In this document: in pieces, positions 6,213 through 33,255 of the stretch
How positions within the stretch are numbered: position 1 is the first letter of the stretch
How the letters are laid out: each line of letters begins with the position of its first letter
Virus record (IMG/VR): IMGVR_UViG_3300047550_003795
Coordinates: 1-35,431 of that record
Source: a virus
DNA length: 35,431 nt
Direction: 5' to 3' (one strand)
Program-made: the position numbers and the translations under genes
The notes under the pieces: generated by a model
The model's database searches: none
The model's input: the letters and a program-made list of their open reading frames with translations, nothing else
What the model was told of the DNA's origin: nothing

Positions 6213-9200
6213 ATGCCTTCTTACGATCCAAATTTGTTCAATGTAAATCCATACTACGATGACTTCAACGAGGACAAGAAGTTCATTAGGATGTTGTTCC
6301 GTCCCGGATATGCCGTGCAGTCCAGGGAACTCACTCAATTGCAAACTATCTTGCAGAATCAGATCGAAAGATTTGGAAATCACATCTTCAAGGATGGATC
6401 AAGAATAATAGGAGGTGAGATATCAACTCAAACATTGTCCTATGTTAGGTTGGAACCGTCAACCGTTGATATCCCGGCATCTTTGATTGTGGACAGCGAC
6501 ATTGTAGGTTATGATCTTATAGAACGGGATTCTGGCGGAAATATTTCCGTTCGTGCGAGGGTTGTGGACTATATTCCAAAGGAACATGAAGAGGATCCAT
6601 ATGGAATTGCGGTGGTTACATATCTTACTGGCGGAGAATTTAGCGAAGAAAAGAATCTTGAGAGTAGCAATTCAAATAAGACCATAACCGTAAAGACTTC
6701 TCCATCCACGGCAACAATTTCTCACGCTGGAGATTGTAGAGTTGTTGGTACAAACGAGGGAATCTATTATATCAATGGATTCTTTATAAAAACAGACAAT
6801 CAGTTTCAACCTGCATATAACACAATCAATGGAATACGACAATTCGGTAGTCCAACTGGAGTGATGGGTTTTGATGTAAGTACACTGATTATATCAGAAG
6901 CAGATGACTATACTCTCAAGGATCCTGCTAGCGGAAACTATAATTACAATGCACCAGGATCCCATAGGTATAAGATAGATTTAGTCCTTTCATTTGTTGA
7001 TAGTATCGCAAACAAGAACTTCATAGAACTGGTGACTTATGCAAGTGGAGTAATAACAAAGAAGGTTGAAGATACCCAATACTCCGATCTAATTCGTCTA
7101 TTTGCACAGAGAACATTTGATGAGAGTGGTAATTACATTGTAAGACCATTCGATGTGTCATTTAGAAATGCAACTGGAAACACATTCTTTGCAGATATTG
7201 GTTCTGGTAAAGCCTATATCTTCGGATATGAATATGAAACCAAGTTCAAGGATACAATCTCCATTCCGAAGGCAAGGACATCTAATCTCTATGAGGATTA
7301 TGTTGTTGACAACTACTTTGGAAATTACATAGTAGGTAAATACAATACATCAAATCTGGCTCAGTTGAATTCGATATTCACAAACATAAGGTTGTCCATA
7401 GGAGAGAACACAACTGCTCCGGTGGTATATGGCGCCAGTGTTGAGGCTACTGGTCCAGAGTTGTCAAATGCAGTTTTCTCTGCAAAACTATTGAAGGTCG
7501 AGAGCAACGATTCGGTCAATAGCAGTGAGTCTGGACAAACGATGGATTTCCGTGCCTATATTGCCGATGTTTCTTATATTAATGTAACACCAGTTAGTGG
7601 TCCTTATTCAACAAATCTATATCTTTTTGATCCTCGCACCAATGTATCGTATAAATTGCTCGACAAGATAACGATGCTTCGTGACATATCATCGACAAAT
7701 TCTGTGCTCCCCGCCTTCAGTGGAACCGACAGACAATCTCTGATATTCCCATTGAATGGAAATACTCCAGCGACAATGGTCAAATCGGTTGAAGAACTAT
7801 CCTACATTCATGAGGTATTCCGTGGTTTTGTGGTAAGCAGTTTGAATCCATATCCAACTATATCCCTTGCACAGGGAGCAGAATTCAACTGGTGTCTTTC
7901 CTCTGGATTTGTCCCAAGTGGAAATGAAATAGAATTATCCTCGGTTGATGGCTACTACCTTGTATATGCTTCTGGTACGGCTTTCCCAATAGGAACAGTG
8001 ATCAAGATAGTTTCATCAACAGCCACGGTTGCATCCGGTGAGACTAAAATAACCGCAAAGATAAGTGGTGATGGTGATACCGTTGTCATCACCAGCAATA
8101 TTCCATATGGATCATATTATCTTGTAGGAAAATCAAAGAATATAAGCATCGGTCTATCAACCACCACAGATCCCGCTACGAAGATAAGAAAAAAGACTCT
8201 TACTTCATATAGTGAGACCGTGACAAACCTGACAAATACGATAGACACTTTCAAGCGAGTTGTAACAAGAAACAGCGCAAACTCCATATCTGCAATTCAT
8301 TTTGTCCTCAATAGATCGGATGTTTATTCTATAACATCAGTGGTTGATGGATTTGGAAATGATGTTAGTGGAGAATTCTTCTTTGATAATGGTCAACGGG
8401 ATGCGACATATGATCTGGCAAAATTGCATGTTAAACCACAGTATTTTACGAAATATGAACCAGGAAAGACATTTCAGATAGTTGTTTCGTATTCATATTT
8501 TGAACATTCTGGCTACGGTCCATTCCTCAAGGAATCATACTTCGGAATTACATATGACAATATACCGATGTATGTGAGTCCAACCACTGAAAACACCATT
8601 CATCTTGCAAATGCAGTTGACTATCGATATCAGGCCAAAATCGTTGGTTACATAGCAACAGGGGCCACTGCTGGCTCTACGGCATCGGAAACACCAACTG
8701 TTGTATTCAATCGACCGATTGTTTCCTATTCCAACGGATTTATTCCGATGCCATTCACGATCAAGCATTCACATAATGCGTATCTTCCAAGAATAGACAA
8801 GATGGTGATAGCAAGGAATATATCAAGTGATGGTGATATAACCACATTGCAGAGAATTCCAGGAATACCAAGCGATAGTCCGATTGTACCAGAAGATCTT
8901 GGTGATTCAATGACCCTATTCGTATTGAGCATACCAGCATATACATTCAATGCAACTGATGTAAAGGCAGACTCGGTTGGAAATTCTAGATTCACCATGA
9001 AGGATATAGGAAATATATCGAAGAGAGTTGATGATCTGGAACAATTTGCCGTACTGAATGAGCAGGAACTTGATGTTGTTTCTAGAAACATAGTCAAAAC
9101 AAACGGAGTCAACGGAATAAAGACCGCAGTTCTGGTTGACACATTTGACGGTCATTCCGTGGCCGATGTGGCCGATTCAGACCATCGTTGCTCAATTGAC

Positions 9201-11435
9201 CTTGAGAAAAGGGAACTAAGGCCATCATTCAATGCCAATTCCTACAAATTCCAGTATTCTGGTGCTGGTAGTGGAATAACCCTCACCACAGACAATATAC
9301 TATGTCTTGATTACACAAAGTATTCCACGCCAATACTTTCACAGGAAAAGGCAAGTTCCACCATAAAGGCAAATCCATTCAATCTACCAAACTGGGTTGG
9401 AAACATAAAGATAACCCCTGTGGCGGACAATTGGTTTGATAGGACGGAAAGACCTATTGTGAAGTCAAATGACAATAGTGTAAATGATGCCTGGCTTGTA
9501 AGCAACATGAACGACTCCCGTGGATATGGAACTCAGTGGAATGATTGGGAGAGCATTTGGTCTGGAATATCAATTGAATTGACGGAGGCCGAATCCAAGA
9601 AGAATAATCAATTCTTCTCAAAGCCACGAACCGTAAAGACCACCAAGGTTGTAGATGATAAGTTTACTTCAGTTTATGGAATACAGAGGTTCACCAGTTC
9701 TGTAGATAAGGTCAAGAACAATTACATAAACGATTTCAGAAAGAAGAACTTCTACTCCGAGGTTGCATCGAATACGATAGTTAACAAGAGTATCGCTCCG
9801 CTGGTTAGGGAGAATACGATAACATTCAATGTGTACAACATGAAGCCGAAGGTTTCGGTTCATGTATTCTTTGATAATGTAAATGTCGATCAGTATTGTT
9901 CAGTTGCAGGACAGACCGGATCATTTGTGACTGATTCTGAGAACGGGTCTCTGCTGAATGTTGTGTTCACCATACCAGAAGGAGTTTTTGAGGTTGGTGA
10001 GAAAATCCTGCGAGTTGTTGATGATATAAACAATACCGTTGAGAACGCGACCACAATTGCCGAGACTGTCTATCACTGTACGGGTATTAAGGAGGACGAC
10101 TATCTTGGAATATCATCCGTAAGACCTGCTGAAATAAGAAAGAAGACTCCAAACAGCAGTAAGATAGTCTCGAATCCCCTATATCCACAGAAGAACATAA
10201 ACACATCAAAGTATAACCTATGGATCGATCCACTTTCACAGACATTTGAGATATCCGAGTCTTCATATCCAAACGGAATATATCTGGAAAGCATTGATCT
10301 ATTCGTTGCAAACAAGGATGACAATCTTCCACTTACGGTGGAAATTTGCCCAACTGTCAACGGAATTCCAAACTCATCGGTGATTATTCCCTTCAGTACA
10401 GTGGTGAAGAATCCATCTGGTATATCGGCAGACAATGTTAATCCCACCGCAACCAATTTTAGGTTCTCTTCGCCAGTTTATCTTTCTCCAGGAACATATG
10501 GAATTCTGATAAGGACAAACACATCAAACTATTCGCTGTTCACCGCGAACATAGGAGAACTGGACATTCTAACCAATGAAAGAATATCCAGCACATTTGC
10601 TGGTGGAGCGTTGTTCAAACCACAGAATAGTGCTGATCCGCAGGGAGATTCGAGCACCGATCTAATGTTCCGTCTCAACAGATGCCAGTTCTCAACTCCA
10701 TCTTCCAGTGCAATAGTCCTAAGCCATGTTGCACAGGGTGGAAGCAATTATGCAAATCTCGTTCAACCATCAATATTTGCATTCACTCCACCAGGCGTTT
10801 CGGTGCAAACCAAGGTGAAGTTTGATGCGGATGAATACGAAGCGATCCCAAACAGAAATCTGTACCTACAGAAGACTTATACCATAACCGACTCTTCAGT
10901 TTTTGAACTAAATGTTTATCCAAATGTTGTGTTTAACAACACATCAACATTCATGATTGACATGGACAGAACATCGGCAATTGTTGTGGAGAACATCGTC
11001 AACAGCAGCGATAGCACTACGCAAGAGACATCTCCATCATCAGGAAAAACCGACTCAACCGCAAGATACATCAGCAAGAGAGTTACCTTGCCCGCAGGGA
11101 AGGTGGCATACGAACTGAAGGTCATACTTGATGCTAACATACCACAAAACACATTCATCAAGGTATATGGAAGGGCATTCAACAATTCACAATTGAATGC
11201 ATCGGTTGATAATCAGCCATATGGACTCATGACTGAGGATACTCCAAGTGGATTCCTTGCTGGCGGAAATAGATCATATTCTCTGAATTCACAGGATTTC
11301 CGTGAAGCATCATTCACATACAATACTCCAGAATCCTCTTCGTTCGATACATTTTCGGTCAAGGTATGCATGTATTCCTCCGACAAATCAAAGGTTCCTG
11401 TGATCAAGAATCTTAGAATAGTGGCTCTTCAATGA
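6213..11435 (+). CDS. Large DUF4815-type baseplate/tail structural protein
   Basis: At 1740 aa this is the largest gene in the window. The N-terminus (FNVNPYYDDFNEDKKFIRML, then FRPGYAVQSRELTQLQTIL and QNQIERFGNHIFKDGS) is the DUF4815 signature of long virion proteins in marine T4-like phages. Around residues 1325-1440 is a second family-like segment (LWIDPLSQTF, SIDLFVANKDDNLPLTVEI, VYLSPGTYGILI), and the C-terminal 150 residues are beta-rich, ending KNLRIVALQ. It occupies the position of T4 genes 9-11, so a role as a peripheral baseplate protein that receives the fibres is likely, but no T4 equivalent is established from sequence. AGGAG at 6199-6203, nine bases before the ATG, is a strong ribosome binding site. 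The stop overlaps the next ATG (ATGA). Confidence 0.8.
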   Translation: MPSYDPNLFNVNPYYDDFNEDKKFIRMLFRPGYAVQSRELTQLQTILQNQIERFGNHIFKDGSRIIGGEISTQTLSYVRLEPSTVDIPASLIVDSDIVGYDLIERDSGGNISVRARVVDYIPKEHEEDPYGIAVVTYLTGGEFSEEKNLESSNSNKTITVKTSPSTATISHAGDCRVVGTNEGIYYINGFFIKTDNQFQPAYNTINGIRQFGSPTGVMGFDVSTLIISEADDYTLKDPASGNYNYNAPGSHRYKIDLVLSFVDSIANKNFIELVTYASGVITKKVEDTQYSDLIRLFAQRTFDESGNYIVRPFDVSFRNATGNTFFADIGSGKAYIFGYEYETKFKDTISIPKARTSNLYEDYVVDNYFGNYIVGKYNTSNLAQLNSIFTNIRLSIGENTTAPVVYGASVEATGPELSNAVFSAKLLKVESNDSVNSSESGQTMDFRAYIADVSYINVTPVSGPYSTNLYLFDPRTNVSYKLLDKITMLRDISSTNSVLPAFSGTDRQSLIFPLNGNTPATMVKSVEELSYIHEVFRGFVVSSLNPYPTISLAQGAEFNWCLSSGFVPSGNEIELSSVDGYYLVYASGTAFPIGTVIKIVSSTATVASGETKITAKISGDGDTVVITSNIPYGSYYLVGKSKNISIGLSTTTDPATKIRKKTLTSYSETVTNLTNTIDTFKRVVTRNSANSISAIHFVLNRSDVYSITSVVDGFGNDVSGEFFFDNGQRDATYDLAKLHVKPQYFTKYEPGKTFQIVVSYSYFEHSGYGPFLKESYFGITYDNIPMYVSPTTENTIHLANAVDYRYQAKIVGYIATGATAGSTASETPTVVFNRPIVSYSNGFIPMPFTIKHSHNAYLPRIDKMVIARNISSDGDITTLQRIPGIPSDSPIVPEDLGDSMTLFVLSIPAYTFNATDVKADSVGNSRFTMKDIGNISKRVDDLEQFAVLNEQELDVVSRNIVKTNGVNGIKTAVLVDTFDGHSVADVADSDHRCSIDLEKRELRPSFNANSYKFQYSGAGSGITLTTDNILCLDYTKYSTPILSQEKASSTIKANPFNLPNWVGNIKITPVADNWFDRTERPIVKSNDNSVNDAWLVSNMNDSRGYGTQWNDWESIWSGISIELTEAESKKNNQFFSKPRTVKTTKVVDDKFTSVYGIQRFTSSVDKVKNNYINDFRKKNFYSEVASNTIVNKSIAPLVRENTITFNVYNMKPKVSVHVFFDNVNVDQYCSVAGQTGSFVTDSENGSLLNVVFTIPEGVFEVGEKILRVVDDINNTVENATTIAETVYHCTGIKEDDYLGISSVRPAEIRKKTPNSSKIVSNPLYPQKNINTSKYNLWIDPLSQTFEISESSYPNGIYLESIDLFVANKDDNLPLTVEICPTVNGIPNSSVIIPFSTVVKNPSGISADNVNPTATNFRFSSPVYLSPGTYGILIRTNTSNYSLFTANIGELDILTNERISSTFAGGALFKPQNSADPQGDSSTDLMFRLNRCQFSTPSSSAIVLSHVAQGGSNYANLVQPSIFAFTPPGVSVQTKVKFDADEYEAIPNRNLYLQKTYTITDSSVFELNVYPNVVFNNTSTFMIDMDRTSAIVVENIVNSSDSTTQETSPSSGKTDSTARYISKRVTLPAGKVAYELKVILDANIPQNTFIKVYGRAFNNSQLNASVDNQPYGLMTEDTPSGFLAGGNRSYSLNSQDFREASFTYNTPESSSFDTFSVKVCMYSSDKSKVPVIKNLRIVALQ

Positions 11436-11603: not shown

Positions 11604-14210
11604 ATGCCGACAGGTCCATCAAGCAGCAGTTACATAATCCCACCACTCACTCTTTCCGATACCTTCTATGAATGGTATAAGTTGACCAACGATGAGATAA
11701 TCGATAAATTAAATCGTCTCAAGGTCTACACTACCGCTGGAAGCACTGGTATAGAGACATTGCAAGGTGACGATGGAATTGCGACGATATACATCGCCCC
11801 TGTAATTCCAGGCGACCACACATTCACTGGAAACATAACATTCGATGGATCGGTTACAACCGTAAATACAAATTTCCTTACAGTAGACGATTACAACATT
11901 GTTCTTGGTGCAGTTGGAACTGGTGGTTCGAATACTGGTGGAACAAGTGACGACAAGATAACTCAGGAGGGTGGAGGAGGAATAGTAATCGCGGGAGCCT
12001 GCGGAAACAAGTATTTTCTATGGAAGGCTTATGAAGGAGTCGGTAGGACATATTCCGCATGGAGAATAAGTGATTCGCTGGCATTCAGTGGTGATGCTAA
12101 ATTCTATTCAAACAACAATTCATTTTCCTTTGTCGAGGGTGATGATTCAACTCCTGCATCATCAATGACAATAAAGACATACAGTAGTGGAAGCACCATA
12201 GATGTTCAGACATATTTTGACATATCTGGTGGGACAACATACACCAATGCAGTATATCTCAGGGATGGATCATCCAGATTGATAGATTCATCGCTGATCA
12301 AGAGATTCAGCAGTATATCCAACATAACATCAATAGGAATCACATTTGGCTCATCGGTAAGACACGATGTCTCAAGTGGTGGATTGACTCTGGCACAAGC
12401 GAACAATGTGTCAAATGCGGAATCCCTTGGTGTTGTAGTAGGATTCAGTATTCCATCACAGACTGTCGATGTGTGTCTGCTGGGATATGTCGGAGGAACC
12501 TTCTCGGGTTCAATAGCATCCGCTGATGCAACAACTGTTCTCGGAACAGGAGAATTCTATTTTCTTTCGGACTCAGAGGCTGGAAAGATAACAAAGAATG
12601 CCCCAACTCTGACAAATACCGTCAGAAAACCACTTCTATATGCCCTTGGTTCAAATAAGGCCATGGTGATGAACTATGTTGGAAATAAGATAGTTGATAT
12701 AGATTCAATCTATTCAAAGATAAACTCATCTACCGTAATAATAAATCATACTGATGGATATTTCTCAATCGGTGATGTCGTTAGATTCGAAGAGGGAATC
12801 ACATCTTCTTCCAGACCACATGGATCGTATGTTAAGGCAAGTTCAGCAAGTCCAGAGGAATCCGAGGCTCTTGGAGTAATATCAAAGATAAATTATGGTG
12901 GCAGCGGTTCATCCTCACTCATGACAGTCTCGGGATTCATAGATCTCAGCGGAATGACTGGTTCAACCCTATCTCCGGGTATGGTTTACTATCTCGGAAT
13001 AGATCCTGGTAGGTTGACCGAAACACCACCGGCATCAATAGGAACCGTTAGAAAACCAATACTTGTAGCCGTAAGTCCCAATACTGGAATTGTTCAGAAC
13101 TATGTTGGTCTTGTAGTGGGAACGGATACATCTTCCTCTGGAACAACCACCGTTAGTAACGGTGCCGCAAGAACAACCAATAAACTGATAAACGGAAATT
13201 TCGATGTATGGCAGAGGGGAACAACCTTTGGATATAGATCCGTAACAACGGAACTTGATCGATACTGTGCCGATAGGTGGAAAGTTGTAAACAGCGGAGC
13301 ACTTGCTTCAGACAGACTTTCCATGCAAGTAAATCAAATTGCTCTTTCGCTTGGCGATCTTGAGGGAAGCAATGTATATTCGAAATACGCATTGGAATTC
13401 GACATAGGCACTGGTGGATACACAAGTGATAGTGAAACCTATCTGTTCCAGAGAGTGGAGGGAATAGAACATCTCCCCAGAGGTTATGCAACCGTATCAT
13501 TCTATGCCAAGTCAACAGTAAGCAATTCTCGCCTTGGAGTTTCTTTCAGAAGAGATTTCGGTGGAGGAACCGCCCCAGACTATCTGACCACAGGAGTGAC
13601 AAATTCCCAATATGTTCCTGGGTTTGTAATAACACCCCCAACATACTGGAAGAAGTTCACATACACATTTGCACTTCCTGATTGCGATGGTGGAGTTATA
13701 GGAAATCTACAAAATGATGGACCTGAATTGAGATTCCATCTTCGGGCAGGAACCACATTTGCAGGAAAATCCGTCAGTGAAGCAATCAATCCGAATATTG
13801 CTGGAGTCAACAACTACAAGATTCAGATAGCACAGGTTCAATTCGAGGAAGGTCTTGCTGCAAATCCATTTGTAGAACTTGATCCACAATCAGAGTTCAC
13901 AAAATGTCTTAGATACTATCAAACAACTTCATCTGTGATTCCCTTCAGACAATTGACCGCCAGTAGTGTCACCGGTCCAGATTCAATAATGGCAATCGGA
14001 TTGGGACTTAATAGTTTCATTACCCCAAGATATCCGGTGGAGATAAGAAATCCATCTTCATCCAGCATAAGCATAGCGGATCAGACGGCATCTCCACCAT
14101 CATCAAATTTCAGTATACTGCAAAGGGGAAGCAAGGGATTCCGCGCTCAAAGAATTGCTGGTTCACCTGGAAATCTAGAGTATCAATATCAAGTAGAATC
14201 GGAACTATAA
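11604..14210 (+). CDS. Tail fibre/adhesin with C-terminal carbohydrate-binding-like region
   Basis: This 868-aa fibre-type protein begins the host-recognition cassette. The N-terminal 110 residues (FYEWYKLTNDEIIDKLNRLK, then GNITFDGSVTTVNTNFLTVD) resemble the virion-anchoring start of marine T4-like fibre proteins. Residues about 272-362 and 420-505 are two copies of a module with the pattern LGVV...G...YYLS...GK.T...RKP(V/I/L)L...NYVG. A third copy lies in the next gene. Residues about 525-868 (NKLINGNFDVWQRGT, YRSVTTELDRYCADRWKV, IQIAQVQFEEG, FVELDPQSEFTKCLRYYQTT) form a C-terminal region widely seen on phage tail fibres and probably a beta-sandwich carbohydrate-binding domain. The start is one base past the previous stop. 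The receptor is unknown. Confidence 0.75.
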   Translation: MPTGPSSSSYIIPPLTLSDTFYEWYKLTNDEIIDKLNRLKVYTTAGSTGIETLQGDDGIATIYIAPVIPGDHTFTGNITFDGSVTTVNTNFLTVDDYNIVLGAVGTGGSNTGGTSDDKITQEGGGGIVIAGACGNKYFLWKAYEGVGRTYSAWRISDSLAFSGDAKFYSNNNSFSFVEGDDSTPASSMTIKTYSSGSTIDVQTYFDISGGTTYTNAVYLRDGSSRLIDSSLIKRFSSISNITSIGITFGSSVRHDVSSGGLTLAQANNVSNAESLGVVVGFSIPSQTVDVCLLGYVGGTFSGSIASADATTVLGTGEFYFLSDSEAGKITKNAPTLTNTVRKPLLYALGSNKAMVMNYVGNKIVDIDSIYSKINSSTVIINHTDGYFSIGDVVRFEEGITSSSRPHGSYVKASSASPEESEALGVISKINYGGSGSSSLMTVSGFIDLSGMTGSTLSPGMVYYLGIDPGRLTETPPASIGTVRKPILVAVSPNTGIVQNYVGLVVGTDTSSSGTTTVSNGAARTTNKLINGNFDVWQRGTTFGYRSVTTELDRYCADRWKVVNSGALASDRLSMQVNQIALSLGDLEGSNVYSKYALEFDIGTGGYTSDSETYLFQRVEGIEHLPRGYATVSFYAKSTVSNSRLGVSFRRDFGGGTAPDYLTTGVTNSQYVPGFVITPPTYWKKFTYTFALPDCDGGVIGNLQNDGPELRFHLRAGTTFAGKSVSEAINPNIAGVNNYKIQIAQVQFEEGLAANPFVELDPQSEFTKCLRYYQTTSSVIPFRQLTASSVTGPDSIMAIGLGLNSFITPRYPVEIRNPSSSSISIADQTASPPSSNFSILQRGSKGFRAQRIAGSPGNLEYQYQVESEL

Positions 14211-14220
14211 AGGATAAAAC

Positions 14221-16137
14221 ATGGGAACAAGTGCATTCGATCCTGTAGTGTTGGCTGATGTTCGTTCTGTGAAGAACAAGATCGATATTTCTGGCCTAAC
14301 GAGCGGAGTAACAACATTCTCTCCTGGAGATGTGATTCGATACGATCCCTCGACCGACAAGTATCTTCTTGCAAAGGCAGATACGCAGGTCAATGCCATG
14401 ATATTGGGTGTTGTCGAAACCATAAATGGAAATGACATGACAATAGTCTATTCTGGTGAGATAAATCTACCAGATTCGGTCTACACCTCCATGACAGGAG
14501 CAACGGCTGCACAGGTTCTGTATCTTTCGGATACAAACGCAGGCAAGTTGACTGCAACCCCACCGTCAAATCAAGGAAGTGTGATAAAACCAGTTGTGGT
14601 TGTCAGCGGAACTCTACAGAGTTCATCTCCAAGTCCCTTGGGAAACATAGATGGAATCGTGGTGAACACCACAGGAACAATAATAACTGGTGACTCGACA
14701 GTGGATCTGAGTGATATACAACCTGTGGGTTCAATAAGTGCTTTTGCTGGCTCGACTGCAAGCATTCCTTCGGGATGGCAACTATGTGATGGTGGACTTC
14801 TTAGCATTTCTCAATATCCCGATCTATATGCTGCGGTAAATGAAGGAAAACTCTATGGATTTGCACAGCAAATCACACTAACATATGACACTGCCAATTC
14901 TTCCACACCACTAAATTCATCGAATCTGGTTGGTGCAAGATTTACTGTGTCGAGGCCGTCCATAACATTTCTATGCACCATATTAAGTGGAACTGTAACA
15001 TCAACCGGAAACATAGACAACGCCGAAGTGCTAGTAGAGCCTACGGACAGCAATTCCGGAAACTATCACAACAGTCAGGTGATAACCAATGATGTGGCAA
15101 GAATGGAAGTTCTCGTTGGTGGGGTGTATACTTCAATCAGTTCCATATACACGGTTTCCGCATCTGGTGGTCAGCCAAAGACTAAGTTCAGAAAGCCCGA
15201 TATAAGATCAAGATTCATAATAGGCGACTCAACCGGTTATACCGGTGAAATGAATACCACATTCGATTCGTATACTCTAGGAATGTATGGAGGAGAAGAA
15301 GAACATACTCTCAGCACATCGGAACTTGCCTTACACGATCATTCTTCTTCTGGACTCTTTGTCTCCATAGCAAATAATCCAACCGTGACACACAATCTTA
15401 CCACCGCAGTTGCTGGTGCTCATAGCCATGTGGTCAGACTATTGAATCCAGTAAATGGAAGAACCAATCTCGGTACATTGAATCAGTTCAATTATTTCGG
15501 TTCAACACAGGTTCCGGCGGTAACTCCAGGATCAGTGGATACATCACCAAATAATCAGGTAATCACCGAAACCATCACTGGTCATAGTCATGCAGTAACA
15601 GGACAAATAACGGTAAACACCGCAAGTCTATCCCCAACTGTCAATGGAACTGTATCAAGCACTGGTTCTGGATTACCCCACAATAATGTTCCGCAGCACA
15701 TAGTAATGCTGTGGATAATAAAGGTTCGAAAAGATTCATATGCCAAGATACTGAAACTCGGTCCTTCGAGTGGGGGTGCTGTTCTGGCAAAAAACACCGC
15801 CAAGAAATGGGCGAGAATGAGTTCCGGTGCTGGAGCAACGATAGACATAGCATATGGTTCATGGGGAACAGTCAATAGAATTGGTAACGGAAATTATATT
15901 CTGAATCACAACTACATAAATGATGTTGATGGAAACAGTGCAGAAGCCACCAAATACATAATTGAGACAACGATAAGCAAGACACAAGGCTCAACCGCCA
16001 TGTTGTTTGCGAATCCATATGGAACTACGGGTGGATACACATTTGGAATTCAGATTTACGATGTTGTTGGTGCTACACATAGTGATAAATTTGATTATCT
16101 AAACATAGTAATGTACGGTGGGGGAACCGCTGTATGA
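14221..16137 (+). CDS. Tail-collar fibre (gp12-like short tail fibre)
   Basis: A 638-aa protein with a phage tail-collar domain: PVGSISAFAGSTASIPSGWQ followed by LCDGGLLSISQYPDLYAAV near residues 167-205, and the partner segment FRKPDIRSRFIIG near residue 323. About 115 residues are inserted between halves that are normally close. Downstream are His pairs LHDH (about 369), AHSH (about 400) and GHSH (about 454), reminiscent of the metal-binding HxH of T4 gp12, then VPQHIVMLWIIKV (about 490-503), the usual end of the collar module. Residues 505-638 form an additional unrecognised tip domain. Residues about 57-147 carry a copy of the module found twice in the preceding fibre. AAGGA six bases before the ATG supports the start. 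The likely role is receptor binding or baseplate attachment. Confidence 0.8.
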   Translation: MGTSAFDPVVLADVRSVKNKIDISGLTSGVTTFSPGDVIRYDPSTDKYLLAKADTQVNAMILGVVETINGNDMTIVYSGEINLPDSVYTSMTGATAAQVLYLSDTNAGKLTATPPSNQGSVIKPVVVVSGTLQSSSPSPLGNIDGIVVNTTGTIITGDSTVDLSDIQPVGSISAFAGSTASIPSGWQLCDGGLLSISQYPDLYAAVNEGKLYGFAQQITLTYDTANSSTPLNSSNLVGARFTVSRPSITFLCTILSGTVTSTGNIDNAEVLVEPTDSNSGNYHNSQVITNDVARMEVLVGGVYTSISSIYTVSASGGQPKTKFRKPDIRSRFIIGDSTGYTGEMNTTFDSYTLGMYGGEEEHTLSTSELALHDHSSSGLFVSIANNPTVTHNLTTAVAGAHSHVVRLLNPVNGRTNLGTLNQFNYFGSTQVPAVTPGSVDTSPNNQVITETITGHSHAVTGQITVNTASLSPTVNGTVSSTGSGLPHNNVPQHIVMLWIIKVRKDSYAKILKLGPSSGGAVLAKNTAKKWARMSSGAGATIDIAYGSWGTVNRIGNGNYILNHNYINDVDGNSAEATKYIIETTISKTQGSTAMLFANPYGTTGGYTFGIQIYDVVGATHSDKFDYLNIVMYGGGTAV

Positions 16138-16151
16138 TAAAGGATCATTGA

Positions 16152-18020
16152 ATGGCTGAATTTTCGGCACATAGAGTAACGCTTCCTGCTGGAGATCGTG
16201 TGGCTATTGCCACTGATTTGAATTTATATGTGTCTCCCTATGGAGACGATGTAATCAATACTGGTACGGATTCAAGTTCTCCATTTAAAACAATTGAACG
16301 AGCCATTCAATGGTTAGGAGACAAGTATATTTCAAAAACCGGATTTGTCACCATAAATTTTGCGGCTGGAATATACGATCTGACCAGCGAATTGGTGTTG
16401 GACCATCCAGAGGGAGAAAGAATAGCACTTGTGGGCGCAGAGCCAGAAACATTGATTCTTCAGAGTGTGGATTCGTACAAGACAAGAGGATTCACGGCTG
16501 ATCAATTCTCTCCATTCTATTCAAACACTAGACATCTTATTGGTATAAAGTGCGTGAGACCGGATGATTCAGCAGGTTATGCTGAAATAGATACGGGAGT
16601 TGGATCTCTGAACTCCATGGGATTGGTTGAAAATGGATATGGAGTGATAGTAGAAGATTATGATTTTGTATACAACAATTCTTACAATCCAATTGGATTT
16701 TATACATCTTTTCCAAACAATGCCAGAAATCTAATTGTTCGCGGTGCATCGATAATGGGTTGTCATAAACTGATTGGTGCAAGTGGTAATGGTTCATTCT
16801 TGACGCTTGAATCAACGATTCGCGACGATTGGATGGCTGTTCCGTCAATTAGTTCTGGTCAAACTATTAGATATTTTTGGGGAAACGCTCAAAATGGAGT
16901 TACTTATGACTTTGCTGGCATCCCCGGCGGATATTGTGGCAATGCTTCTGATGTCAGTGAAGATATTAGCAATAATTCATTAAATAATGCTAGATATAAA
17001 CATACATTTAGCACAGTTCCCATTGGATACTATGGAACAGTTAGTACTTCGGGAATACCAGCATCAGCGGTGGCAAATGTCATTGGATTGACACTTCCAC
17101 TGGGTCAACTATCTCCATCTGTTGGTGGAACAGCAAATTTTACACAGAATACTATTTATGAGGGAAACGGAACAAATAGGAGTGCGTCCTATTCCTATGC
17201 TTGCGGAAGCACATATTCTTTCATAAATGACACAATTTTGTTGGGAAATGGAAATAACCATCATAAATGGGATGCTCTTGTATCTCCACCAGGATCTCCA
17301 CCAGGATTTGGAAATACTTTGTCACTTAGAACAAATAATTCCAACAGAATAACCGTTAAGGTAATACCAACCGTATTCAGAAGATTTGGAAACATAATCT
17401 CAATACCGACATCTGGACTTAGAAAAATAAAGAACATATTCTTCAATGGAAAGAATATGTGCTATCACTATGGAATGATTTCTAGCGGACTTTCGTCAAC
17501 TGAAAGTTACAGCAACAAGATGGCTATCCATGCATCCAATTCAAAGTTGGGTGAGGCAGTCGAAAATGAACCATCAGGACTTGGATCTGGCCTATGCACA
17601 AATGTCGGTATAGCAAATTTTCATACCGCGGTATTCTGCGACAATCATACTCGTTGCAATTTGGGAAAGATAGTGGCATCAAACTGTTCGTTTGGCATAT
17701 ATGCAAATGATGGTTCTTCGGTGCAGACTTCTGGTAGTGTATGCACTGGTATTGCATCAAATGCATTTTCTGCACTTAATTCCTCAACCATGACATTGGA
17801 AAGATGCTATTCAGCATTTACGGGACAATCACTTGTCACTCTTAAACTGAAGAGCGGTGGAACTTTTGCCGAGAATTCCTTTATTCCTGGTCAGACATAC
17901 TCCTCTCCAGATGGAAAAATAACGGGAACCGTATGGGATTGGAATTCAAGGGATAGGGTTCTCAATATAGCAGTAAGGGTTGGTTTAGCCGAAGGTGGCG
18001 ATCCAAAGACACAGAGATAA
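16152..18020 (+). CDS. Beta-helix tail fibre/tailspike-like protein
   Basis: A 622-aa protein. Residues 23-60 (NLYVSPYGDD, then SSPFKTIERAIQWLGDKY) and the following INFAAGIYDLTSEL and GERIALVGAE are the entry to a parallel right-handed beta-helix of the pectate-lyase-like type, in which YVSPxGxD...TSPFxTIxxA is typical. Asn/Gly/Ser-rich coils follow (YGVIVEDYDF, NLIVRGASIMGC, FGIYANDGSSVQ). Such folds serve as fibre stalks or as enzymatic tailspikes that cleave surface polysaccharide. I cannot identify catalytic residues, so enzymatic activity is unproven. AAAGGA lies seven bases before the ATG. Three neighbouring genes are also fibre-like. Confidence 0.7.
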   Translation: MAEFSAHRVTLPAGDRVAIATDLNLYVSPYGDDVINTGTDSSSPFKTIERAIQWLGDKYISKTGFVTINFAAGIYDLTSELVLDHPEGERIALVGAEPETLILQSVDSYKTRGFTADQFSPFYSNTRHLIGIKCVRPDDSAGYAEIDTGVGSLNSMGLVENGYGVIVEDYDFVYNNSYNPIGFYTSFPNNARNLIVRGASIMGCHKLIGASGNGSFLTLESTIRDDWMAVPSISSGQTIRYFWGNAQNGVTYDFAGIPGGYCGNASDVSEDISNNSLNNARYKHTFSTVPIGYYGTVSTSGIPASAVANVIGLTLPLGQLSPSVGGTANFTQNTIYEGNGTNRSASYSYACGSTYSFINDTILLGNGNNHHKWDALVSPPGSPPGFGNTLSLRTNNSNRITVKVIPTVFRRFGNIISIPTSGLRKIKNIFFNGKNMCYHYGMISSGLSSTESYSNKMAIHASNSKLGEAVENEPSGLGSGLCTNVGIANFHTAVFCDNHTRCNLGKIVASNCSFGIYANDGSSVQTSGSVCTGIASNAFSALNSSTMTLERCYSAFTGQSLVTLKLKSGGTFAENSFIPGQTYSSPDGKITGTVWDWNSRDRVLNIAVRVGLAEGGDPKTQR

Positions 18021-18031
18021 CGGAAATATAG

Positions 18032-19045
18032 ATGCCAATAATAAAAGAAACATCTTCTGGCGTAATTGAAACATATGGTGTTCCGAAGGACATTGCAGAT
18101 GCAAATACCACAACCACAACAGCCAGCGGATATGGCACTGAAGTAACATCCGTGAATGTTGGATCTATAAGTTTTCCATATCAATATGATATCATAACCA
18201 CACAGAAGGTTGTTGGAAATGGATATGTCTCGTCTGGATCATCAAGTATCAAGTGCAGTTCTTCCGTCGCACTTCTATCAAGAAATTTTGCATTTACAGC
18301 ACTGAGAAACTCTTCCTTGGAAATGAGTTCCTGCGCAACAAATATCGCGCAAAGAGGAATTTGTGCTCTTTATTCATCAACCGCAACCGTAAAAAATTGT
18401 GTTTCATGTCTATCGGAAGTAAATTACCTATCCGCCAATTGTTCTTCGTTGATATTACAGGCATCTGCATCAATGCTTCCATTCAGATATGGGGTTGACA
18501 CTCAGTATGACTCAAGCGTATCGCTTCAGGATTTTGAGACAGTAACTGCAAATTTTGCTGGAGCATTTGCCATACAGAGTTCCAACATACCAGTTCCAAC
18601 TCATTTCAGAAGCATATACAATTCTTTTGTTGAAAATACATCGTATTCTCTAACTACAAAACCACTTGCTTCAGGTTTTTCTGGGCCAGAGTTTGATTCC
18701 AAGCCATTGAATCTTGTTTGGTCTCAAATAGCATTTGGGGTTGGTATTGCTTCTGGTAGTACTGCTGCAACAAACATACTAGGAACTCCAGTGGCGAGTT
18801 ATAGATATGTTCCATTTTCACATAGTCTTGATTGGTCCAATGTATATCCTGCATCTCTGGTTGCAGCAAGTACAGCGATAAACACACCAGGATTTGTATC
18901 AATGCTAACTAGACCAAGAAACAATTATAGTTCAGTAAAACCACCGGCGACCATATTTAAAGCGGAGGATAACTCGGGGTTGATTGGAACTAATACTGGA
19001 TTGACTGGCGATTTTTCAATATTCGATCTGATAAATTCGCTTTAG
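18032..19045 (+). CDS. Beta-rich structural protein of the fibre cassette, unknown
   Basis: A 337-aa protein that I do not recognise. The N-terminal third is Thr/Ser-rich (IADANTTTTTASGYGTEVTS). Residues about 70-150 show short repeated strands with Ser and Cys (NSSLEMSSCATNIAQRG, STATVKNCVSC, CSSLILQASAS) that look like beta-helix coils similar to those in the upstream 622-aa protein. The rest contains LVWSQIAFGVGIASGSTAATN and ends IFDLINSL. Cysteines are concentrated in the coil region, which is unusual in the window. Only a weak CGGAAA lies before the ATG. Position between two adhesin-type genes suggests a fibre component or partner of the upstream protein (inference). Confidence 0.6.
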   Translation: MPIIKETSSGVIETYGVPKDIADANTTTTTASGYGTEVTSVNVGSISFPYQYDIITTQKVVGNGYVSSGSSSIKCSSSVALLSRNFAFTALRNSSLEMSSCATNIAQRGICALYSSTATVKNCVSCLSEVNYLSANCSSLILQASASMLPFRYGVDTQYDSSVSLQDFETVTANFAGAFAIQSSNIPVPTHFRSIYNSFVENTSYSLTTKPLASGFSGPEFDSKPLNLVWSQIAFGVGIASGSTAATNILGTPVASYRYVPFSHSLDWSNVYPASLVAASTAINTPGFVSMLTRPRNNYSSVKPPATIFKAEDNSGLIGTNTGLTGDFSIFDLINSL

Positions 19046-19061
19046 TCGGGAGAAACTCAAG

Positions 19062-21008
19062 ATGGCTTACAGGCTATGCACGCTAGACGCAGATGGAAAG
19101 ATAACTTCTGTTTCATTGGAAAGTTATGCTGACTCAATAAATCCGGATGTTAGGCTGTCCGCTAATCGAACCAGTTATCATTTCATCAATGAAGATTCAT
19201 TATCATCTTTGTTGACAAGTCCTGTCGTTGGAATTGATGATCAGTCCACGATTTCAATAGGTCAGGATGGATCAGTAGCAATTCGTATTCCCGATTCACC
19301 ACCTTCTATTTTAGCACAATACGATCCAAGAACAGAGGTGGTTCTCTATACACCAGACACACCATTGCAGTTCACTCATGGTGACAGAATTGTGCAGGAT
19401 GTAACTAAAGTAACGACTGTTTACAATTCTCTCGACACAACTACGATACCATACCATTCCACAACACAAAAGAAATTTGGCCTGTCATCGGGTAAATTCA
19501 CAAAAAATATAAACGGATATACTGGTTCTGGCTTGGTTGTTTCAAACATAAGCAAGACGAACTACACGGGCGGATATACCGCACCACACAATAACCTTGC
19601 TGCCAATTCGACTGCCTCATATTCAATGGAGTTGTTTTTTAGACCAGAGAGCATAGCAACAAATTTCACTTTGATGCAGAAGGGTCCAACGGGAGCATCT
19701 GCAAACTGGAAACTTGGATATGATAGTTCCGCAGGATTCCTGCAATTTGCCTGGCAATCCTATGGTTATGCATCCGGATACAACTATTCGGAAAATATAG
19801 TGAATACCGCAGGCTTGACACTGAACACCTGGCATCATGTGGCTGTTTCCGTAATAAGAAATGTAACCTCTGGAACAGGATATCTCATATCGGGATATTT
19901 CAATGGTAAGAATGTGTTTACGCGAAGCGTTACTGCATCCTCTTTTCCGGAGATGAGATATGATAATCCAATATACATCGGATGTGACCATCTTGGAAAC
20001 GAATATTTTGACGGATATATTGACTCGACAAGAGTTCTGGAGTCTGGAAGCACATATGGAATATTCGGAAAAACCGGATATGGATTTCTTCCTCACGCAT
20101 CTGGAACTCTTTCAGTTCCAACCACGCAGGGATTTACAAGAAATCCTGAAACTGCATTCATATTGAACTTCAATGGTATCGAAGGAAGCAGTGCTTTTTA
20201 TGGAGAAAGCAAGGATTTTTTCTCTGGAACAGTGACGAGATTGGCAAACCTTACTCTAGGCCCAACAGGACCAGCATATGCCAACAAGAGTGAAATAGGA
20301 GTAAGGAATGTCGTTCGGTATACTCTGGGTTACACTGGTGCAACTGGATTCTCCGATCCAACTGGTTACAGTCTATCCTATGGACATATAGTTCTTCCTT
20401 ATGTCGCTGCATATGGAAACACCACATCTCATGGTTATGATTTCATATACAATCTGTCTGATGTTTACGATAATGATCTGAGCATAGGAGTTTTCAGACA
20501 GAATTACAGGATAGATGCAGTCTATGATGCAAGTAGATCCCTGGTTGCGATGATAGAAGGTGCATATGGAAACATCGGCTCATGTGGAAGTGTATTTCAG
20601 ACTCAGTACGGTACGAATCCATTCGTAAGGCTTTTTTCAAATGGTGGGGGAATGTCGTATGGAATAGGGTTGTCGCACAATTCCCTGTACATAGATCCAC
20701 TTAATCAGAATACCATGAGGTACATAATGGATAGTGGTTATCTTGCTAGCCAAGGTATAACTGCTTCGACTTATTCATTCATAGATGGTAGAGGAATAAC
20801 CAGAAATATAAATTCTACCGATATGATAAATCTTAGACTTGATCTAATTTCTTATCAAAATAGCCTTATTAATCAAACTGATACAACCATAGCATCGATA
20901 AATTCGGCAGCAACGAAAAATGAAGTTAAGTTTGCCAAACTGAATAAATCTTCTGGCTCCATTTATTCCATAATAAGTCCAAAGGAAGAATTCAATACCT
21001 ACGAATGA
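19062..21008 (+). CDS. LamG/concanavalin-like domain fibre protein
   Basis: A 648-aa protein. Residues about 187-325 have the pattern of a LamG/concanavalin A-like jelly roll: YSMELFFRPES, FTLMQKGPTG, LNTWHHVAVSVIR, GYFNGKNVF, PIYIGCDHLGNEYFDGYIDS. Such domains commonly bind glycans. The N-terminal 110 residues include ISIGQDGSVAIRI and are unrecognised. The C-terminus (MINLRLDLISYQNSLINQ, TTIASINSAATKNEVKFAKL) is predicted by eye to be helical and could be a trimeric coiled coil. GGGAGA eight bases before the ATG supports the start; the stop overlaps the next ATG. It is probably another tail fibre or a decoration adhesin. Confidence 0.7.
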   Translation: MAYRLCTLDADGKITSVSLESYADSINPDVRLSANRTSYHFINEDSLSSLLTSPVVGIDDQSTISIGQDGSVAIRIPDSPPSILAQYDPRTEVVLYTPDTPLQFTHGDRIVQDVTKVTTVYNSLDTTTIPYHSTTQKKFGLSSGKFTKNINGYTGSGLVVSNISKTNYTGGYTAPHNNLAANSTASYSMELFFRPESIATNFTLMQKGPTGASANWKLGYDSSAGFLQFAWQSYGYASGYNYSENIVNTAGLTLNTWHHVAVSVIRNVTSGTGYLISGYFNGKNVFTRSVTASSFPEMRYDNPIYIGCDHLGNEYFDGYIDSTRVLESGSTYGIFGKTGYGFLPHASGTLSVPTTQGFTRNPETAFILNFNGIEGSSAFYGESKDFFSGTVTRLANLTLGPTGPAYANKSEIGVRNVVRYTLGYTGATGFSDPTGYSLSYGHIVLPYVAAYGNTTSHGYDFIYNLSDVYDNDLSIGVFRQNYRIDAVYDASRSLVAMIEGAYGNIGSCGSVFQTQYGTNPFVRLFSNGGGMSYGIGLSHNSLYIDPLNQNTMRYIMDSGYLASQGITASTYSFIDGRGITRNINSTDMINLRLDLISYQNSLINQTDTTIASINSAATKNEVKFAKLNKSSGSIYSIISPKEEFNTYE

Positions 21009-21292
21009 TTTTGCATAGAATTGGTGAAATGTTGACTATAAATGGAGAGAGATTCAACCTCTCCGATCTTGTGAATGTCCTTCCTCAATATGATAAGGGG
21101 AGTCACATTGTTCATTATTATGACGGAAAAAAACATTATGTTTCTGACGGAAGAAAGCAAGTTGGTTGTGGATTGCCATATCCACTAGCGGAAAAAATAA
21201 GTTTTCACATAAACGAGATGAGGATGTGTAGAAGTCAGCGTGAGATGGATGATAAGTATTTTGAGAATTTAAGAAAAGGAACACGCCAATGA
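21005..21292 (+). CDS. Conserved-context small protein, 95 aa, unknown
   Basis: A short gene with ATGA overlaps on both sides (with the LamG-like gene upstream and gp13 downstream), which strongly supports translation. The product begins MILHRIGEMLTINGERFNLS and contains HIVHYYDGKKHYVSDGRK and GLPYPLAEKISFHINEMRM. It is basic, has no obvious signal peptide or membrane segment, and has one Cys near the middle. I do not recognise a family. Its place between fibre genes and the neck gene could mean a small tail or neck component or a fibre-assembly helper; this is inference. Confidence 0.65.
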   Translation: MILHRIGEMLTINGERFNLSDLVNVLPQYDKGSHIVHYYDGKKHYVSDGRKQVGCGLPYPLAEKISFHINEMRMCRSQREMDDKYFENLRKGTRQ

Positions 21293-22059
21293 ACATTTCC
21301 TCAAGAGAACAGTTGAAGGATTATGCCCTTAGACGGCTAGGATTTCCTGTAATTGAAATAAATGTCGATGATGCTCAGGTAGAGGATAGAATAGACGATG
21401 CATTGCAATTCTTCTCACAGTATCATTTTGATGGTGTTGAGGAGGCATATCTTCCATATGTGATAACACAAACTGACATTGATAACAGGTACATAAACAC
21501 GAATAACATATCAACAGGTTCTTCTGGTGGAGAAATAGTAAGCATTGAGAAGGTCTTCATAGTCGATAACGCTGTTCAGAGTGGAATGTTCAGTGTTCAG
21601 TATCAACTCATGTTGAATGACTACTTCAATGGATTTCTAACAGGAACATCGAATCTTAACTACTACGATACTACAAAGCAGTATCTGTCCCTGTTGCAAC
21701 AGTTTCTAAGTCCAGAGAAGCAGATAACATTCAGTCGTGTTACAAACAAACTAAAGATAGAAACATCCTGGTCTGAGACTTTCAAGGCGGGTGACAAACT
21801 GATGGTTCGTGCTTTTGTGGCTCTTAATCCCGAGACATATCCCGAGATATACAACGATATCCTATTGAAACGATATGTTACGGCATTGATCAAGCGACAA
21901 TGGGCTGCGAATCTCAGTAAATTCTCCAATATAGCATTGCCTGGTGGGATGAGATTCGATGCAGCAACGATGTATACAGACGCCACAACAGAACTTCTTG
22001 AAATAGAAAATAGCGTTCAGAGTAAATACGAACTTCCAGTGGATTTCATGGTGGGTTAA
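21289..22059 (+). CDS. 13: Neck protein gp13 (head completion)
   Basis: A 256-aa protein against about 309 aa in T4. gp13 and gp14 form the head-neck complex that seals the filled head and accepts the tail. The N-terminus is the family signature: REQLKDYALRRLGFPVIEIN, then VEDRIDDALQFFSQYHFDGV. Further typical elements are FKAGDKLMVRAF and ETYPEIYNDILLKRYVTALIKRQWAANLSKF, followed by LPGGMRFDA near residues 215-230. The ATG overlaps the stop of the preceding gene (ATGA), and the stop directly abuts the gp14 ATG. Gene order 13-14-15 supports the call. Confidence 0.92.
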   Translation: MNISSREQLKDYALRRLGFPVIEINVDDAQVEDRIDDALQFFSQYHFDGVEEAYLPYVITQTDIDNRYINTNNISTGSSGGEIVSIEKVFIVDNAVQSGMFSVQYQLMLNDYFNGFLTGTSNLNYYDTTKQYLSLLQQFLSPEKQITFSRVTNKLKIETSWSETFKAGDKLMVRAFVALNPETYPEIYNDILLKRYVTALIKRQWAANLSKFSNIALPGGMRFDAATMYTDATTELLEIENSVQSKYELPVDFMVG

Positions 22060-22914
22060 ATGGCAAGAAACAATTACTTCAAGGTTTCTTCCAGAGAATC
22101 GGACCTGTTTCAGCAACTTGTAAGAGAGCAGATACAGATCTTCGGATTTGATGTTCATTATATCTTCAGAAAATTTCAAAATCTTGACTATCTGTTTGGA
22201 GAAGATCCAGTATCAAAATTCAATAAGAGTTTTCAGATAGAGATGTTTGTCAGCAACTATGAGTTCTTTGAGCATCAGAACAAGATAATCGATAAGTTTG
22301 GAATCAACTTGCAAGACTCACTGACACTGATGGTTTCAAAAAAGAGATTTACCGAAGAATCATCCAAGTATGGGACGGATATTGCTCCAAATGAGGGAGA
22401 CATAATTTATTTTCCGGAGTATGGAGGTCTGTATGAGATCAAGTATGTACAGACCAGAAATTCATATTTTGCCTATGAACTATCCTGTGAACTATTCCGT
22501 TACAGTGGTGAAAACATAGACACGAAGATCAAGGAAGTTGATGTTATAGAAAAGAACCTTATGCATCCTGTGAAGAAGTTCACACTATCTGGAACTGGAA
22601 AAACCTTCTATGATGGAGAAACCATATATCAAGGAAACTCGCTGGCAACAAGTACATACAAGGCAACAGTGCTCAATTTCAATGGTGCAAGTGGAGCAGT
22701 TGAAGTTCACAGTGAAGTAGGCTCTCCGTCTATAACCACATATCTGAGTGGCTACTCATCCGGAGTAACTGCATTCTATACAACATATAGTGGAACGGAT
22801 AAGGTCTTCTCTGATTCCATGAATGAAAACACATCGACAATAGAACTCGAAAAGATAACAAAAGATATATTTGATTTTACGGACAAGGATCCTTTCTCCG
22901 AGGGTAACTACTGA
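22060..22914 (+). CDS. 14: Neck protein gp14
   Basis: A 284-aa protein (T4 about 256 aa), partner of gp13 in the neck. The diagnostic pattern is present: QLVREQIQIFGFDVHYI, DYLFGEDPVSKFNKSFQIEM, FEHQNKIIDKFGINLQDSLTL, then NEGDIIYFPEYGGLYEIKYV, which parallels EGDLIYFPMDNSLFEI in T4 gp14. Residues about 180-250 hold a beta-rich stretch (GETIYQGNSLATSTYKATVL) of a type I have seen in other marine T4-like virion proteins. The C-terminus (DFTDKDPFSEGNY) resembles the SPFDNDFMD end of T4 gp14. The start abuts the gp13 stop; the end overlaps gp15 (TGATG). Confidence 0.92.
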   Translation: MARNNYFKVSSRESDLFQQLVREQIQIFGFDVHYIFRKFQNLDYLFGEDPVSKFNKSFQIEMFVSNYEFFEHQNKIIDKFGINLQDSLTLMVSKKRFTEESSKYGTDIAPNEGDIIYFPEYGGLYEIKYVQTRNSYFAYELSCELFRYSGENIDTKIKEVDVIEKNLMHPVKKFTLSGTGKTFYDGETIYQGNSLATSTYKATVLNFNGASGAVEVHSEVGSPSITTYLSGYSSGVTAFYTTYSGTDKVFSDSMNENTSTIELEKITKDIFDFTDKDPFSEGNY

Positions 22915-23573
22915 TGTTCAGGTATTTCTATCACGGAAGCATGAGGAAACTGGTCGTTGCATTCGGTTCTTTATTCGATGATATCTACATCTCAAGGAAG
23001 AATCAGGATGGAAGCGAACAAACCAAAATAAAGGTTCCCATATCCTATGGACCAAAGGAAAAATTCTTCCGCAAGATAGAGGAATTGTCGCAGACTTCAA
23101 GAGAAGCAGTTGAGAACATTCTTCCGAGAATAGGATTTGAAATCACTTCAATGTCATATGATCCAGGCAGAAAAGTAAATAGCCTGAACAGATCCTTTGC
23201 CACCAGAACGGAAACTGGAATCACTGCTGCATATTCCTATAGTGAGGTTCCATACAACATAGATTTCAGTCTGAATGTTATGACAAGAAACATAGATGAT
23301 GGATATCAGATATTGGAACAGATACTTCCGTATTTCACTCCAGATTTCACAGTTACCATGAACTTCACCGAGATAGACAGAAAGGTTGATGTGCCTATAG
23401 TCCTCACATCGGTGAACACCACCGAGGATTATGAAGGAGATCTTGAAACCAGAAGAGTCGTAACACACACTCTCTCGTTCCAGGCTAAGTCCTACATCTT
23501 TGGGCCGATAGTATCAAATAGACTGGTGAGAGAAATAACATTGAACTTCTTTGATTTGGATGGAATGACATGA
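22914..23573 (+). CDS. 15: Tail sheath terminator/stabiliser gp15
   Basis: A 219-aa protein; T4 gp15 is about 272 aa and forms the hexamer that terminates the tail tube and sheath and joins the tail to the neck. The family pattern is clear: MFRYFYHGSMRKLVVAFGSL, FDDIYISRKN, VPISYGPKEKF, IEELSQTSREAVENILPRIGF, YQILEQILPYFTPDFTVTMNF and RRVVTHTLSFQAKSYIFGP. T4 gp15 has an extra Pro-rich tail that is missing here. The start overlaps the gp14 stop by one base, and the stop overlaps a small downstream ORF (ATGA). Confidence 0.92.
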   Translation: MFRYFYHGSMRKLVVAFGSLFDDIYISRKNQDGSEQTKIKVPISYGPKEKFFRKIEELSQTSREAVENILPRIGFEITSMSYDPGRKVNSLNRSFATRTETGITAAYSYSEVPYNIDFSLNVMTRNIDDGYQILEQILPYFTPDFTVTMNFTEIDRKVDVPIVLTSVNTTEDYEGDLETRRVVTHTLSFQAKSYIFGPIVSNRLVREITLNFFDLDGMT

Positions 23574-23701: not shown

Positions 23702-23716
23702 ACTTGGAGTAGTGAT

Positions 23717-25847: not shown

Positions 25848-25900
25848 TTCAAATACCAAAAATCCTACATATCTCATAGATTCATCGGGAGAACACATAA

Positions 25901-27799: not shown

Positions 27800-27808
27800 G
27801 GAGAGAAA

Positions 27809-30553: not shown

Positions 30554-30572
30554 GGGATAGAGGAGTAACTAA

Positions 30573-31142: not shown

Positions 31143-31164
31143 TATAGATTTATTGGAGAGATGA

Positions 31165-32856: not shown

Positions 32857-32874
32857 GGAATACTGGAGAAAAAA

Positions 32875-33243: not shown

Positions 33244-33255
33244 AAGGAGCCGAAG

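What the first reader, a model, noticed from the sequence alone, without database searches (positions are those of the whole stretch)
12421..14670. One fibre module present three times across two adjacent genes
About 90 residues with the pattern LGVV..., G...YYLS...GK(I/L)T...(R/K)KP(L/I/V)..., often ending NYVG, occur twice in the 868-aa fibre (about 12421-12700 and 12865-13120) and once near the start of the collar fibre (about 14394-14666). Sharing between neighbours suggests module duplication and exchange, a route to new fibres.
Basis: seen in the sequence. Interest (0 to 1): 0.5.

Follow-up and report, generated by a model that had tools for sequence, protein, structure and literature searches.

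The report
Old repeated module in phage fibres
Two neighbouring fibre genes of an uncultured T4-related phage share three distant copies of one barrel-shaped building block that were duplicated long ago and have since stayed in their own places, so this is an ordinary case of ancient fibre-part reuse rather than recent swapping.

Summary
The 868-aa fibre (11604-14210) carries two tandem copies of a ~125-residue module, and the next gene, a collar-domain fibre (14221-16137), a third near its start. They share 30-33% amino-acid identity (alignment z 11.7-13.2). The module is longer than described, and "NYVG" ends only two copies. Recent exchange is not supported: copies are only 41-46% identical in DNA. 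In a tree of 66 modules the collar-gene copies form one well-supported group, the second fibre copies one weaker group, and one group for the first copies is not rejected. Both module genes are present and adjacent in 31 of 38 related loci; the other 7 are cut by the end of the stretch held. So the duplications predate this phage family. Pfam, PHROGs and PDB sequence searches give no clear family. A confident model (pLDDT 93.9) is a beta-barrel whose nearest solved structures are mostly phage capsid-shell chains and phi29 appendage or head-fibre domains, at modest scores; 42 predicted viral proteins match at E<=0.001. Most likely it is a structural, probably trimeric, bead between virion anchor and tip (inferred). 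T4 gp10/gp11/gp12 are the known precedent.

The parts
11604..14210 (+). 868-aa fibre gene: N-terminal anchor-like region, modules A and B, distal tip
   Evidence: open frame and translation; residues 509-818 match phrog_4492 tail fiber protein, E 7.9e-38
11604..11933 (+). N-terminal anchor-like region (residues 1-110) conserved in relatives; the anchor role is inferred
   Evidence: 72% identical in each of four near relatives, 51% in L012, 29-30% over the 89-103 aligned residues in four distant ones; invariant I/W/N/KLN and G columns in 11 sequences
12324..12695 (+). module A
   Evidence: HMM domain; AlphaFold2 model pLDDT 93.9
12732..13109 (+). module B
   Evidence: HMM domain
13128..14057 (+). 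distal tip region (residues 509-818), found in many phages that lack the module
   Evidence: phrog_4492; 71 of 80 loci kept match only from residue 455 or later and show no module in the stretch held
14221..16137 (+). 638-aa collar-domain fibre gene, adjacent and same strand
   Evidence: Pfam Collar PF07484 at residues 170-206, E 5.9e-12
14284..14658 (+). module C
   Evidence: HMM domain

Best explanation
A single beta-barrel structural module was duplicated in an ancestor of this phage family. It gave a tandem pair (A, B) in one baseplate or tail fibre, and a single copy (C) near the start of the neighbouring collar-domain fibre. Since then each copy has been inherited in its own slot. SHOWN: homology of the three, slot-wise grouping, conserved gene pair, confident beta-barrel model, and, in far relatives, distal parts that vary more than modules A and C (module B varies about as much as they do). 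INFERRED: the barrels act as rigid, probably trimeric, beads that space and align the chains between an N-terminal virion anchor and a C-terminal receptor-binding or collar part.
For: Pairwise z 11.7-13.2. A+B in the fibre and C in the next gene in 8 of 9 of L004-L012 (L010 is cut before the second gene), and module genes adjacent in 23 of 29 loci L086-L114 (6 cut by the end of the stretch held). Tree of 66 modules: C one group 99/96, B one group 70/90, A as one clade not rejected (p-AU 0.15). Fold: pLDDT 93.9. VIA-align best Z 8.6 to a mycobacteriophage Adjutor chain, then Borrelia phage BB1, Patience, HFTV1, XM1, Pam3, phi29 gp12, and lower T1, Sf11 and phi29 gp8.5 (that the capsid chains are decoration proteins is my reading, the titles name only capsids). 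42 BFVD matches at E<=0.001, most of them uncharacterised, two named tail or tail-fibre proteins and others bearing major-tropism-determinant or intramolecular-chaperone names. In four far relatives module A keeps 32-37% identity and residues 651-868 keep 17-21%. In the L160-type contigs (5 of 5) two consecutive genes carry the module, one of them diverged, and in L160 the tip (phrog_4492) is a separate gene right behind them, as expected of separable parts. T4 precedent: gp10, gp11 and gp12, sequential and all trimers, superimpose on one fold (PMC3004832, passages seen). Beta-tulip decoration proteins form trimers on capsids (PMC7602432, passages seen).
Against: No experiment and no trimer prediction. 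PDB fold scores are modest: Foldseek best E 0.054, and VIA Z 5-8.6 lies in the range that tool calls common for weak matches. Support for B (70/90) and A is not strong, and long branches are present. Module B keeps only 17-24% identity in four far relatives, no more than the tip. Copy B is not detected by the plain HMM in 25 of the 29 wider loci (at least L100 and L109 do not hold that stretch). Clean profile comparison supports a diverged B only moderately (P 1.6e-4 to 7.1e-4, full-length register, 1.7-2.0 times the best of 20 column shuffles), and it is no closer to the B profile than to A or C (P 1.3e-4 and 9.9e-4).
Confidence: 0.7

Rival explanations
1. Recent duplication or ongoing gene conversion between the neighbouring genes.
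For: Adjacent genes share the module; two of 18 within-genome pairs have an identical run longer than expected, 12 nt (P 0.019) and 15 nt (P 0.002).
Against: Within-genome DNA identity 40-46% against 59-70% for window orthologues in four of five relatives; modules group by slot; blastn between copies gives at best E about 0.04.
Confidence: 0.04
2. The modules are receptor- or glycan-binding domains, several per fibre for avidity.
For: They sit in fibres, are beta-rich, and repeated domains can raise avidity (general knowledge); module B varies about as much as the tip in far relatives.
Against: Modules A and C are better conserved than the distal stretches in far relatives; the nearest solved folds are capsid-shell and appendage domains; no lectin match.
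Confidence: 0.12
3. Homologous modules dock the two gene products onto each other, the way T4 gp12's N terminus sits coaxially on gp10's N-terminal domain.
For: Both genes carry the module in 31 of 31 loci where both can be seen; C lies near the N terminus of its protein; T4 precedent of coaxial attachment (PMC3004832, passages).
Against: No co-folding was done; co-conservation is equally expected from linkage.
Confidence: 0.12
4. Chance or low-complexity Gly/Ser/Thr similarity.
For: The proteins are rich in G, S and T (by eye).
Against: Shuffled copies of the same composition reach at most 65 against 104-116; one profile recovers the slots in dozens of loci.
Confidence: 0.01

Closest known systems
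T4 baseplate proteins gp10, gp11, gp12
   Same: [quoted passage not shown] the window genes lie between gp8-like/DUF4815 genes and head-tail adaptor (gp13-type) genes, the part of the T4 gene order where I recall 9-12 and wac.
   Different: T4 sharing is visible only in structure; here it is visible in sequence. The module did not match gp10, gp11 or gp12 in the sequence or fold lists, which does not exclude a distant relation.
Beta-barrel (beta-tulip and similar) capsid decoration proteins and phi29 gp8.5/gp12 domains
   Same: Overall barrel; best VIA-align rows are phage capsid-shell and phi29 chains.
   Different: Those capsid proteins are mostly small single proteins; no sequence similarity; phage lambda (8xqb) and phage 21 SHP chains score only Z 2.1-2.6.
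Pfam PF07484 Phage Tail Collar domain (second gene only)
   Same: E 5.9e-12 at residues 170-206, after module C.
   Different: Collar is a separate domain; the L086, L089, L091 and L098 partner genes carry a module but no Collar match at E<=0.01.
PDB 8keg neck fiber gp82N
   Same: Best PDB sequence for the module profiles, E 0.056 and 0.022.
   Different: Borderline only; partial coverage.

Membership tests
Paralogous repeat family within these fibres | Significant similarity beyond composition | tested here: met
Recently duplicated or converted repeats | DNA identity between copies at or above that between orthologues | tested here: not met
   40-46% within genomes against 59-70% for window orthologues in L004, L008, L009, L011 (42-49% in the remote L012)
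Phage Tail Collar (PF07484), second gene | Score above Pfam gathering cutoff | tested here: met
   45.8 bits against 24
Beta-tulip decoration-protein fold | Five-stranded antiparallel barrel with a helix between strands 3 and 4 | tested here: inconclusive
   model has 8 strands, a helix at residues 4-7 and a three-residue turn between strands 5 and 6; Z 2.1-8.6 to phage capsid-type chains; definition from PMC7602432 passages
Beta-tulip decoration-protein fold | Homotrimer | not testable with these tools
   only single-chain prediction offered
T4 gp10/gp11/gp12 type shared-fold baseplate genes | Neighbouring fibre or baseplate genes share a domain by old duplication | tested here: met
   that these genes are baseplate parts is inferred from gene order
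T4 gp10/gp11/gp12 family proper | Shared 'flower' motif of T4 gp10/11/12 | tested here: inconclusive
   not listed among fold or sequence matches of the module; only L012's collar gene, of 9 partner or module genes scanned, has a sub-threshold Gp10_C match, E 0.006
Known curated family (Pfam, PHROGs) | Module itself matches a family model | tested here: not met
   Pfam: no match over the window's modules; of three relatives' modules one sub-threshold End_beta_barrel row, E 0.06. PHROGs: 5 families, each hit by 1 of 18 members, best E 0.0023; one further row at E 0.062

The most novel reading that the evidence does not exclude
The shared module is a heterotypic docking interface: barrels of the fibre and barrels of the collar fibre stack on a common threefold axis, so the two adjacent gene products assemble into one composite fibre. 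The ancient duplication would then have turned a self-assembling shaft bead into an adaptor between two fibres.
Probability: 0.12. Interest if true: 0.45.

Novelty: new member of a known kind. Interest (0 to 1): 0.25.

Why it matters
It gives a sequence-visible example of what T4 shows only in structures: neighbouring baseplate or fibre genes built from copies of one domain. It also defines a fibre module without a curated family in the libraries searched, with a possible fold link to capsid decoration proteins. It does not show active fibre shuffling.

Tried and rejected
Recent conversion: tested and rejected. Composition artefact: rejected. tblastn of six module queries in 50,697 phage records found none: E<=1 for the three window copies, E<=0.1 for L012 B, L085 A and L160. 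This search is weak for short divergent queries, since the predicted-structure library does list proteins of Sphingomonas phage MMDA13 and Synechococcus phage S-N03. Six annotated phage regions picked around DUF4815 or tip homologues (L166-L171) had no module; best profile E was 0.31. A genome-contig scan with the L160 module found no relative. Module C alone found none in viral contigs, although relatives are there, so that kind of search misses relatives. First structure model (18 rows) was poor, pLDDT 61.6, and its fold search is not used. An N-terminal anchor profile gave only weak PDB matches, best E 0.087. Phage lambda and phage 21 SHP chains score only Z 2.1-2.6, so I do not file the module as beta-tulip.

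Two labels were corrected. In some searches the second copy of L087 was counted as a first copy, and a module of L160 stood among the C copies. The tree was rebuilt and the profile comparison redone with controls. The stronger values for the distant second copy (P 4.3e-8 and 3e-6) are withdrawn in favour of 1.9e-4 and 3.3e-4.

Papers: PMC3004832, PMC7602432 and PMC6775164 were seen as passages only; all others only as search listings (one search listed none). The original gp10 structure paper was not read. I did not find this module described, by the searches in that library only.

Full report
WHAT THE WINDOW IS. The window is a 35,431-base record of an uncultured virus. Homologues of T4 baseplate, neck, terminase, sheath, tube, portal, protease and scaffold proteins lie on the + strand: gp6-like 33-1868, baseplate wedge or structural 1865-3898, gp8-like 3900-6200, a 1740-aa DUF4815 protein 6213-11435, then fibre-cluster genes 11604-21008, and head-tail adaptor to scaffold genes 21289-35073. 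I read it as a T4-superfamily myovirus fragment.

CHECK OF THE OBSERVATION. Three copies exist and score far above shuffled copies of themselves (104, 109, 116 against maxima of 59-65 in 1000 shuffles). No fourth copy was found in the window. Bounds from a profile are A 12324-12695, B 12732-13109 and C 14284-14658. The module is about 125 residues. C lacks the NYVG ending.

RECENT OR OLD. In the window the copies are 30-33% identical in protein and 44-46% in DNA over aligned codons. On a 29-row alignment the DNA figure is 40-46% for 18 within-genome pairs of six genomes, 41-44% in the window itself. Window orthologues in L004, L008, L009 and L011 are 59-70% identical in DNA; L012 is remote at 42-49%. 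Of the 18 within-genome pairs, window A-B (12 nt, P 0.019) and L009 A-C (15 nt, P 0.002) have an unexpectedly long identical run, the latter near the edge of significance after correction for 18 tests; L009 B-C has P 0.035. A tree of 29 modules placed A, B and C each on one side of a branch (supports 79/65, 92/90, 75/58). A tree of 66 modules, after one label error was corrected, kept C (26 rows, 99/96) and B (10 rows, 70/90) as groups and did not reject A as one (30 rows, p-AU 0.15). So the copies most likely separated before these phages did, and the trees show no slot-to-slot exchange.

DISTRIBUTION. The best 80 of 149 loci found with the fibre protein split in two. Nine (L004-L012) carry modules; 71 match only from residue 455 or later and hold no module within the stretch fetched. 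A second search from a distant relative (best 80 of 258) gave 30 loci with modules (L086-L114 and L160) and 50 without. Among the 38 loci L004-L012 and L086-L114, both module-bearing genes are present and adjacent in 31; in the other 7 the stretch held ends inside or before one of the genes (L010, L094, L095, L100, L105, L109, L112). Several of these loci are near-duplicates (for example L097/L098, L091/L099), so these counts overstate independence. DUF4815 homologues lie just upstream in 9 of 9 of L004-L012, but tblastn finds none in the 29 others or in L160.

SECOND COPY IN DISTANT RELATIVES. The profile finds copy B in 10 of 10 of the window and L004-L012, but in only 4 of 29 of L086-L114 (L087, L097, L098, L105). 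At least L100 and L109 do not hold that stretch. Profile-profile comparison of the stretch after copy A in two subgroups (9 and 7 distinct sequences) with the A and C profiles gives P 1.6e-4 to 7.1e-4 over 95-103 columns, 1.7-2.0 times the best of 20 column shuffles. Ten control comparisons with other fibre regions align over at most 33 columns, though one of them (tip against C, 33 columns) reaches P 9.5e-4. These stretches are no closer to the B profile (P 1.3e-4 and 9.9e-4). I take a diverged second copy there as likely, not proven.

FOLD. With 57 diverse rows the model of module A is confident (mean pLDDT 93.9, pTM 0.87). PDB Foldseek has no match at E<=0.001; the best is cyanophage Pam3 capsid chain G at 0.054. 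VIA-align, on 189 chains, ranks mycobacteriophage Adjutor (Z 8.6, 3.5 A over 114), Borrelia phage BB1, Patience, HFTV1, XM1, Pam3, then phi29 gp12 and further phage capsid chains, with a herpesvirus capsid chain (Z 5.1) and a designed protein (Z 3.0) lower down. These scores are modest by the tool's own note; the coherence of the list is the argument, and that the capsid chains are decoration proteins is my reading of them. In predicted viral structures 42 match at E<=0.001, most of them uncharacterised. No Pfam or PHROGs model clearly covers the module.

ARCHITECTURE AND MECHANISM. The fibre reads: anchor-like N terminus (residues 1-110), a variable stretch, barrels A and B, then a tip that other phages carry without barrels. 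The collar fibre reads: about 20 residues, barrel C, Collar domain, further distal part. In four far relatives (L086, L091, L102, L107) module A keeps 32-37% identity, residues 503-650 keep 23-28%, residues 651-868 keep 17-21%, and module B only 17-24%; so A, not B, stands out. In four near relatives A keeps 65-74%, B 62-71% and residues 651-868 keep 44-58%. In the second gene the module keeps 30-36% in six far relatives, the collar stretch 27-46% and residues 216-430 13-21%; in four near relatives residues 216-430 keep 38-42% but the last 130 residues 56-71%, as much as the module (54-72%). Some partner genes have no Pfam Collar match (L086, L089, L091, L098). In 5 of 5 contigs of the L160 group (L172-L176) two consecutive genes carry a module, one of them diverged, and a stand-alone tip gene follows in L160. 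The module therefore looks like a structural part next to exchangeable ends. That it trimerises and spaces anchor from tip is inferred from fibre biology and from the trimeric decoration proteins (PMC7602432, passages).

COMPARISON. T4 gp10, gp11 and gp12 are sequential in the genome, trimeric, at the baseplate periphery, and superimpose on one fold (PMC3004832, passages). The present case works like that precedent, with a module not matched to theirs here and with the relation still readable in sequence. It is a new member of a known kind.

Noticed in passing
25901-27799 and 27809-30550: Two tandem tail-sheath genes, 632 and 913 aa, 41% identical over 498 aligned positions plus 45% over a 162-position N-terminal stretch; an older duplication of the sheath, which might form a two-protein sheath.
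   Followed up: partly
19062-21008: Another fibre-cluster protein carries a Laminin_G_3 (concanavalin A-like lectin) domain, E 1.7e-16, a good receptor-binding candidate.
   Followed up: no
L160 887-8292: In another phage group two consecutive genes each carry the module (one diverged) and in L160 the phrog_4492 tip is a separate 353-aa gene behind them.
   Followed up: partly
13128-14057: The tip region is widely shared with phages in which no module was found by tblastn, including Stenotrophomonas, Rhizobium and Synechococcus phages.
   Followed up: partly
16152-19045: Two further fibre-cluster proteins (622 and 337 aa) have almost no family match: one weak PHROG (E 0.0015) for the first, none for the second.
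   Followed up: no
L012 9737-11041: The L012 collar gene has a sub-threshold match to Gp10_C, the T4 gp10 C-terminal domain (E 0.006), hinting that the collar fibre is gp10/gp12-like.
   Followed up: no
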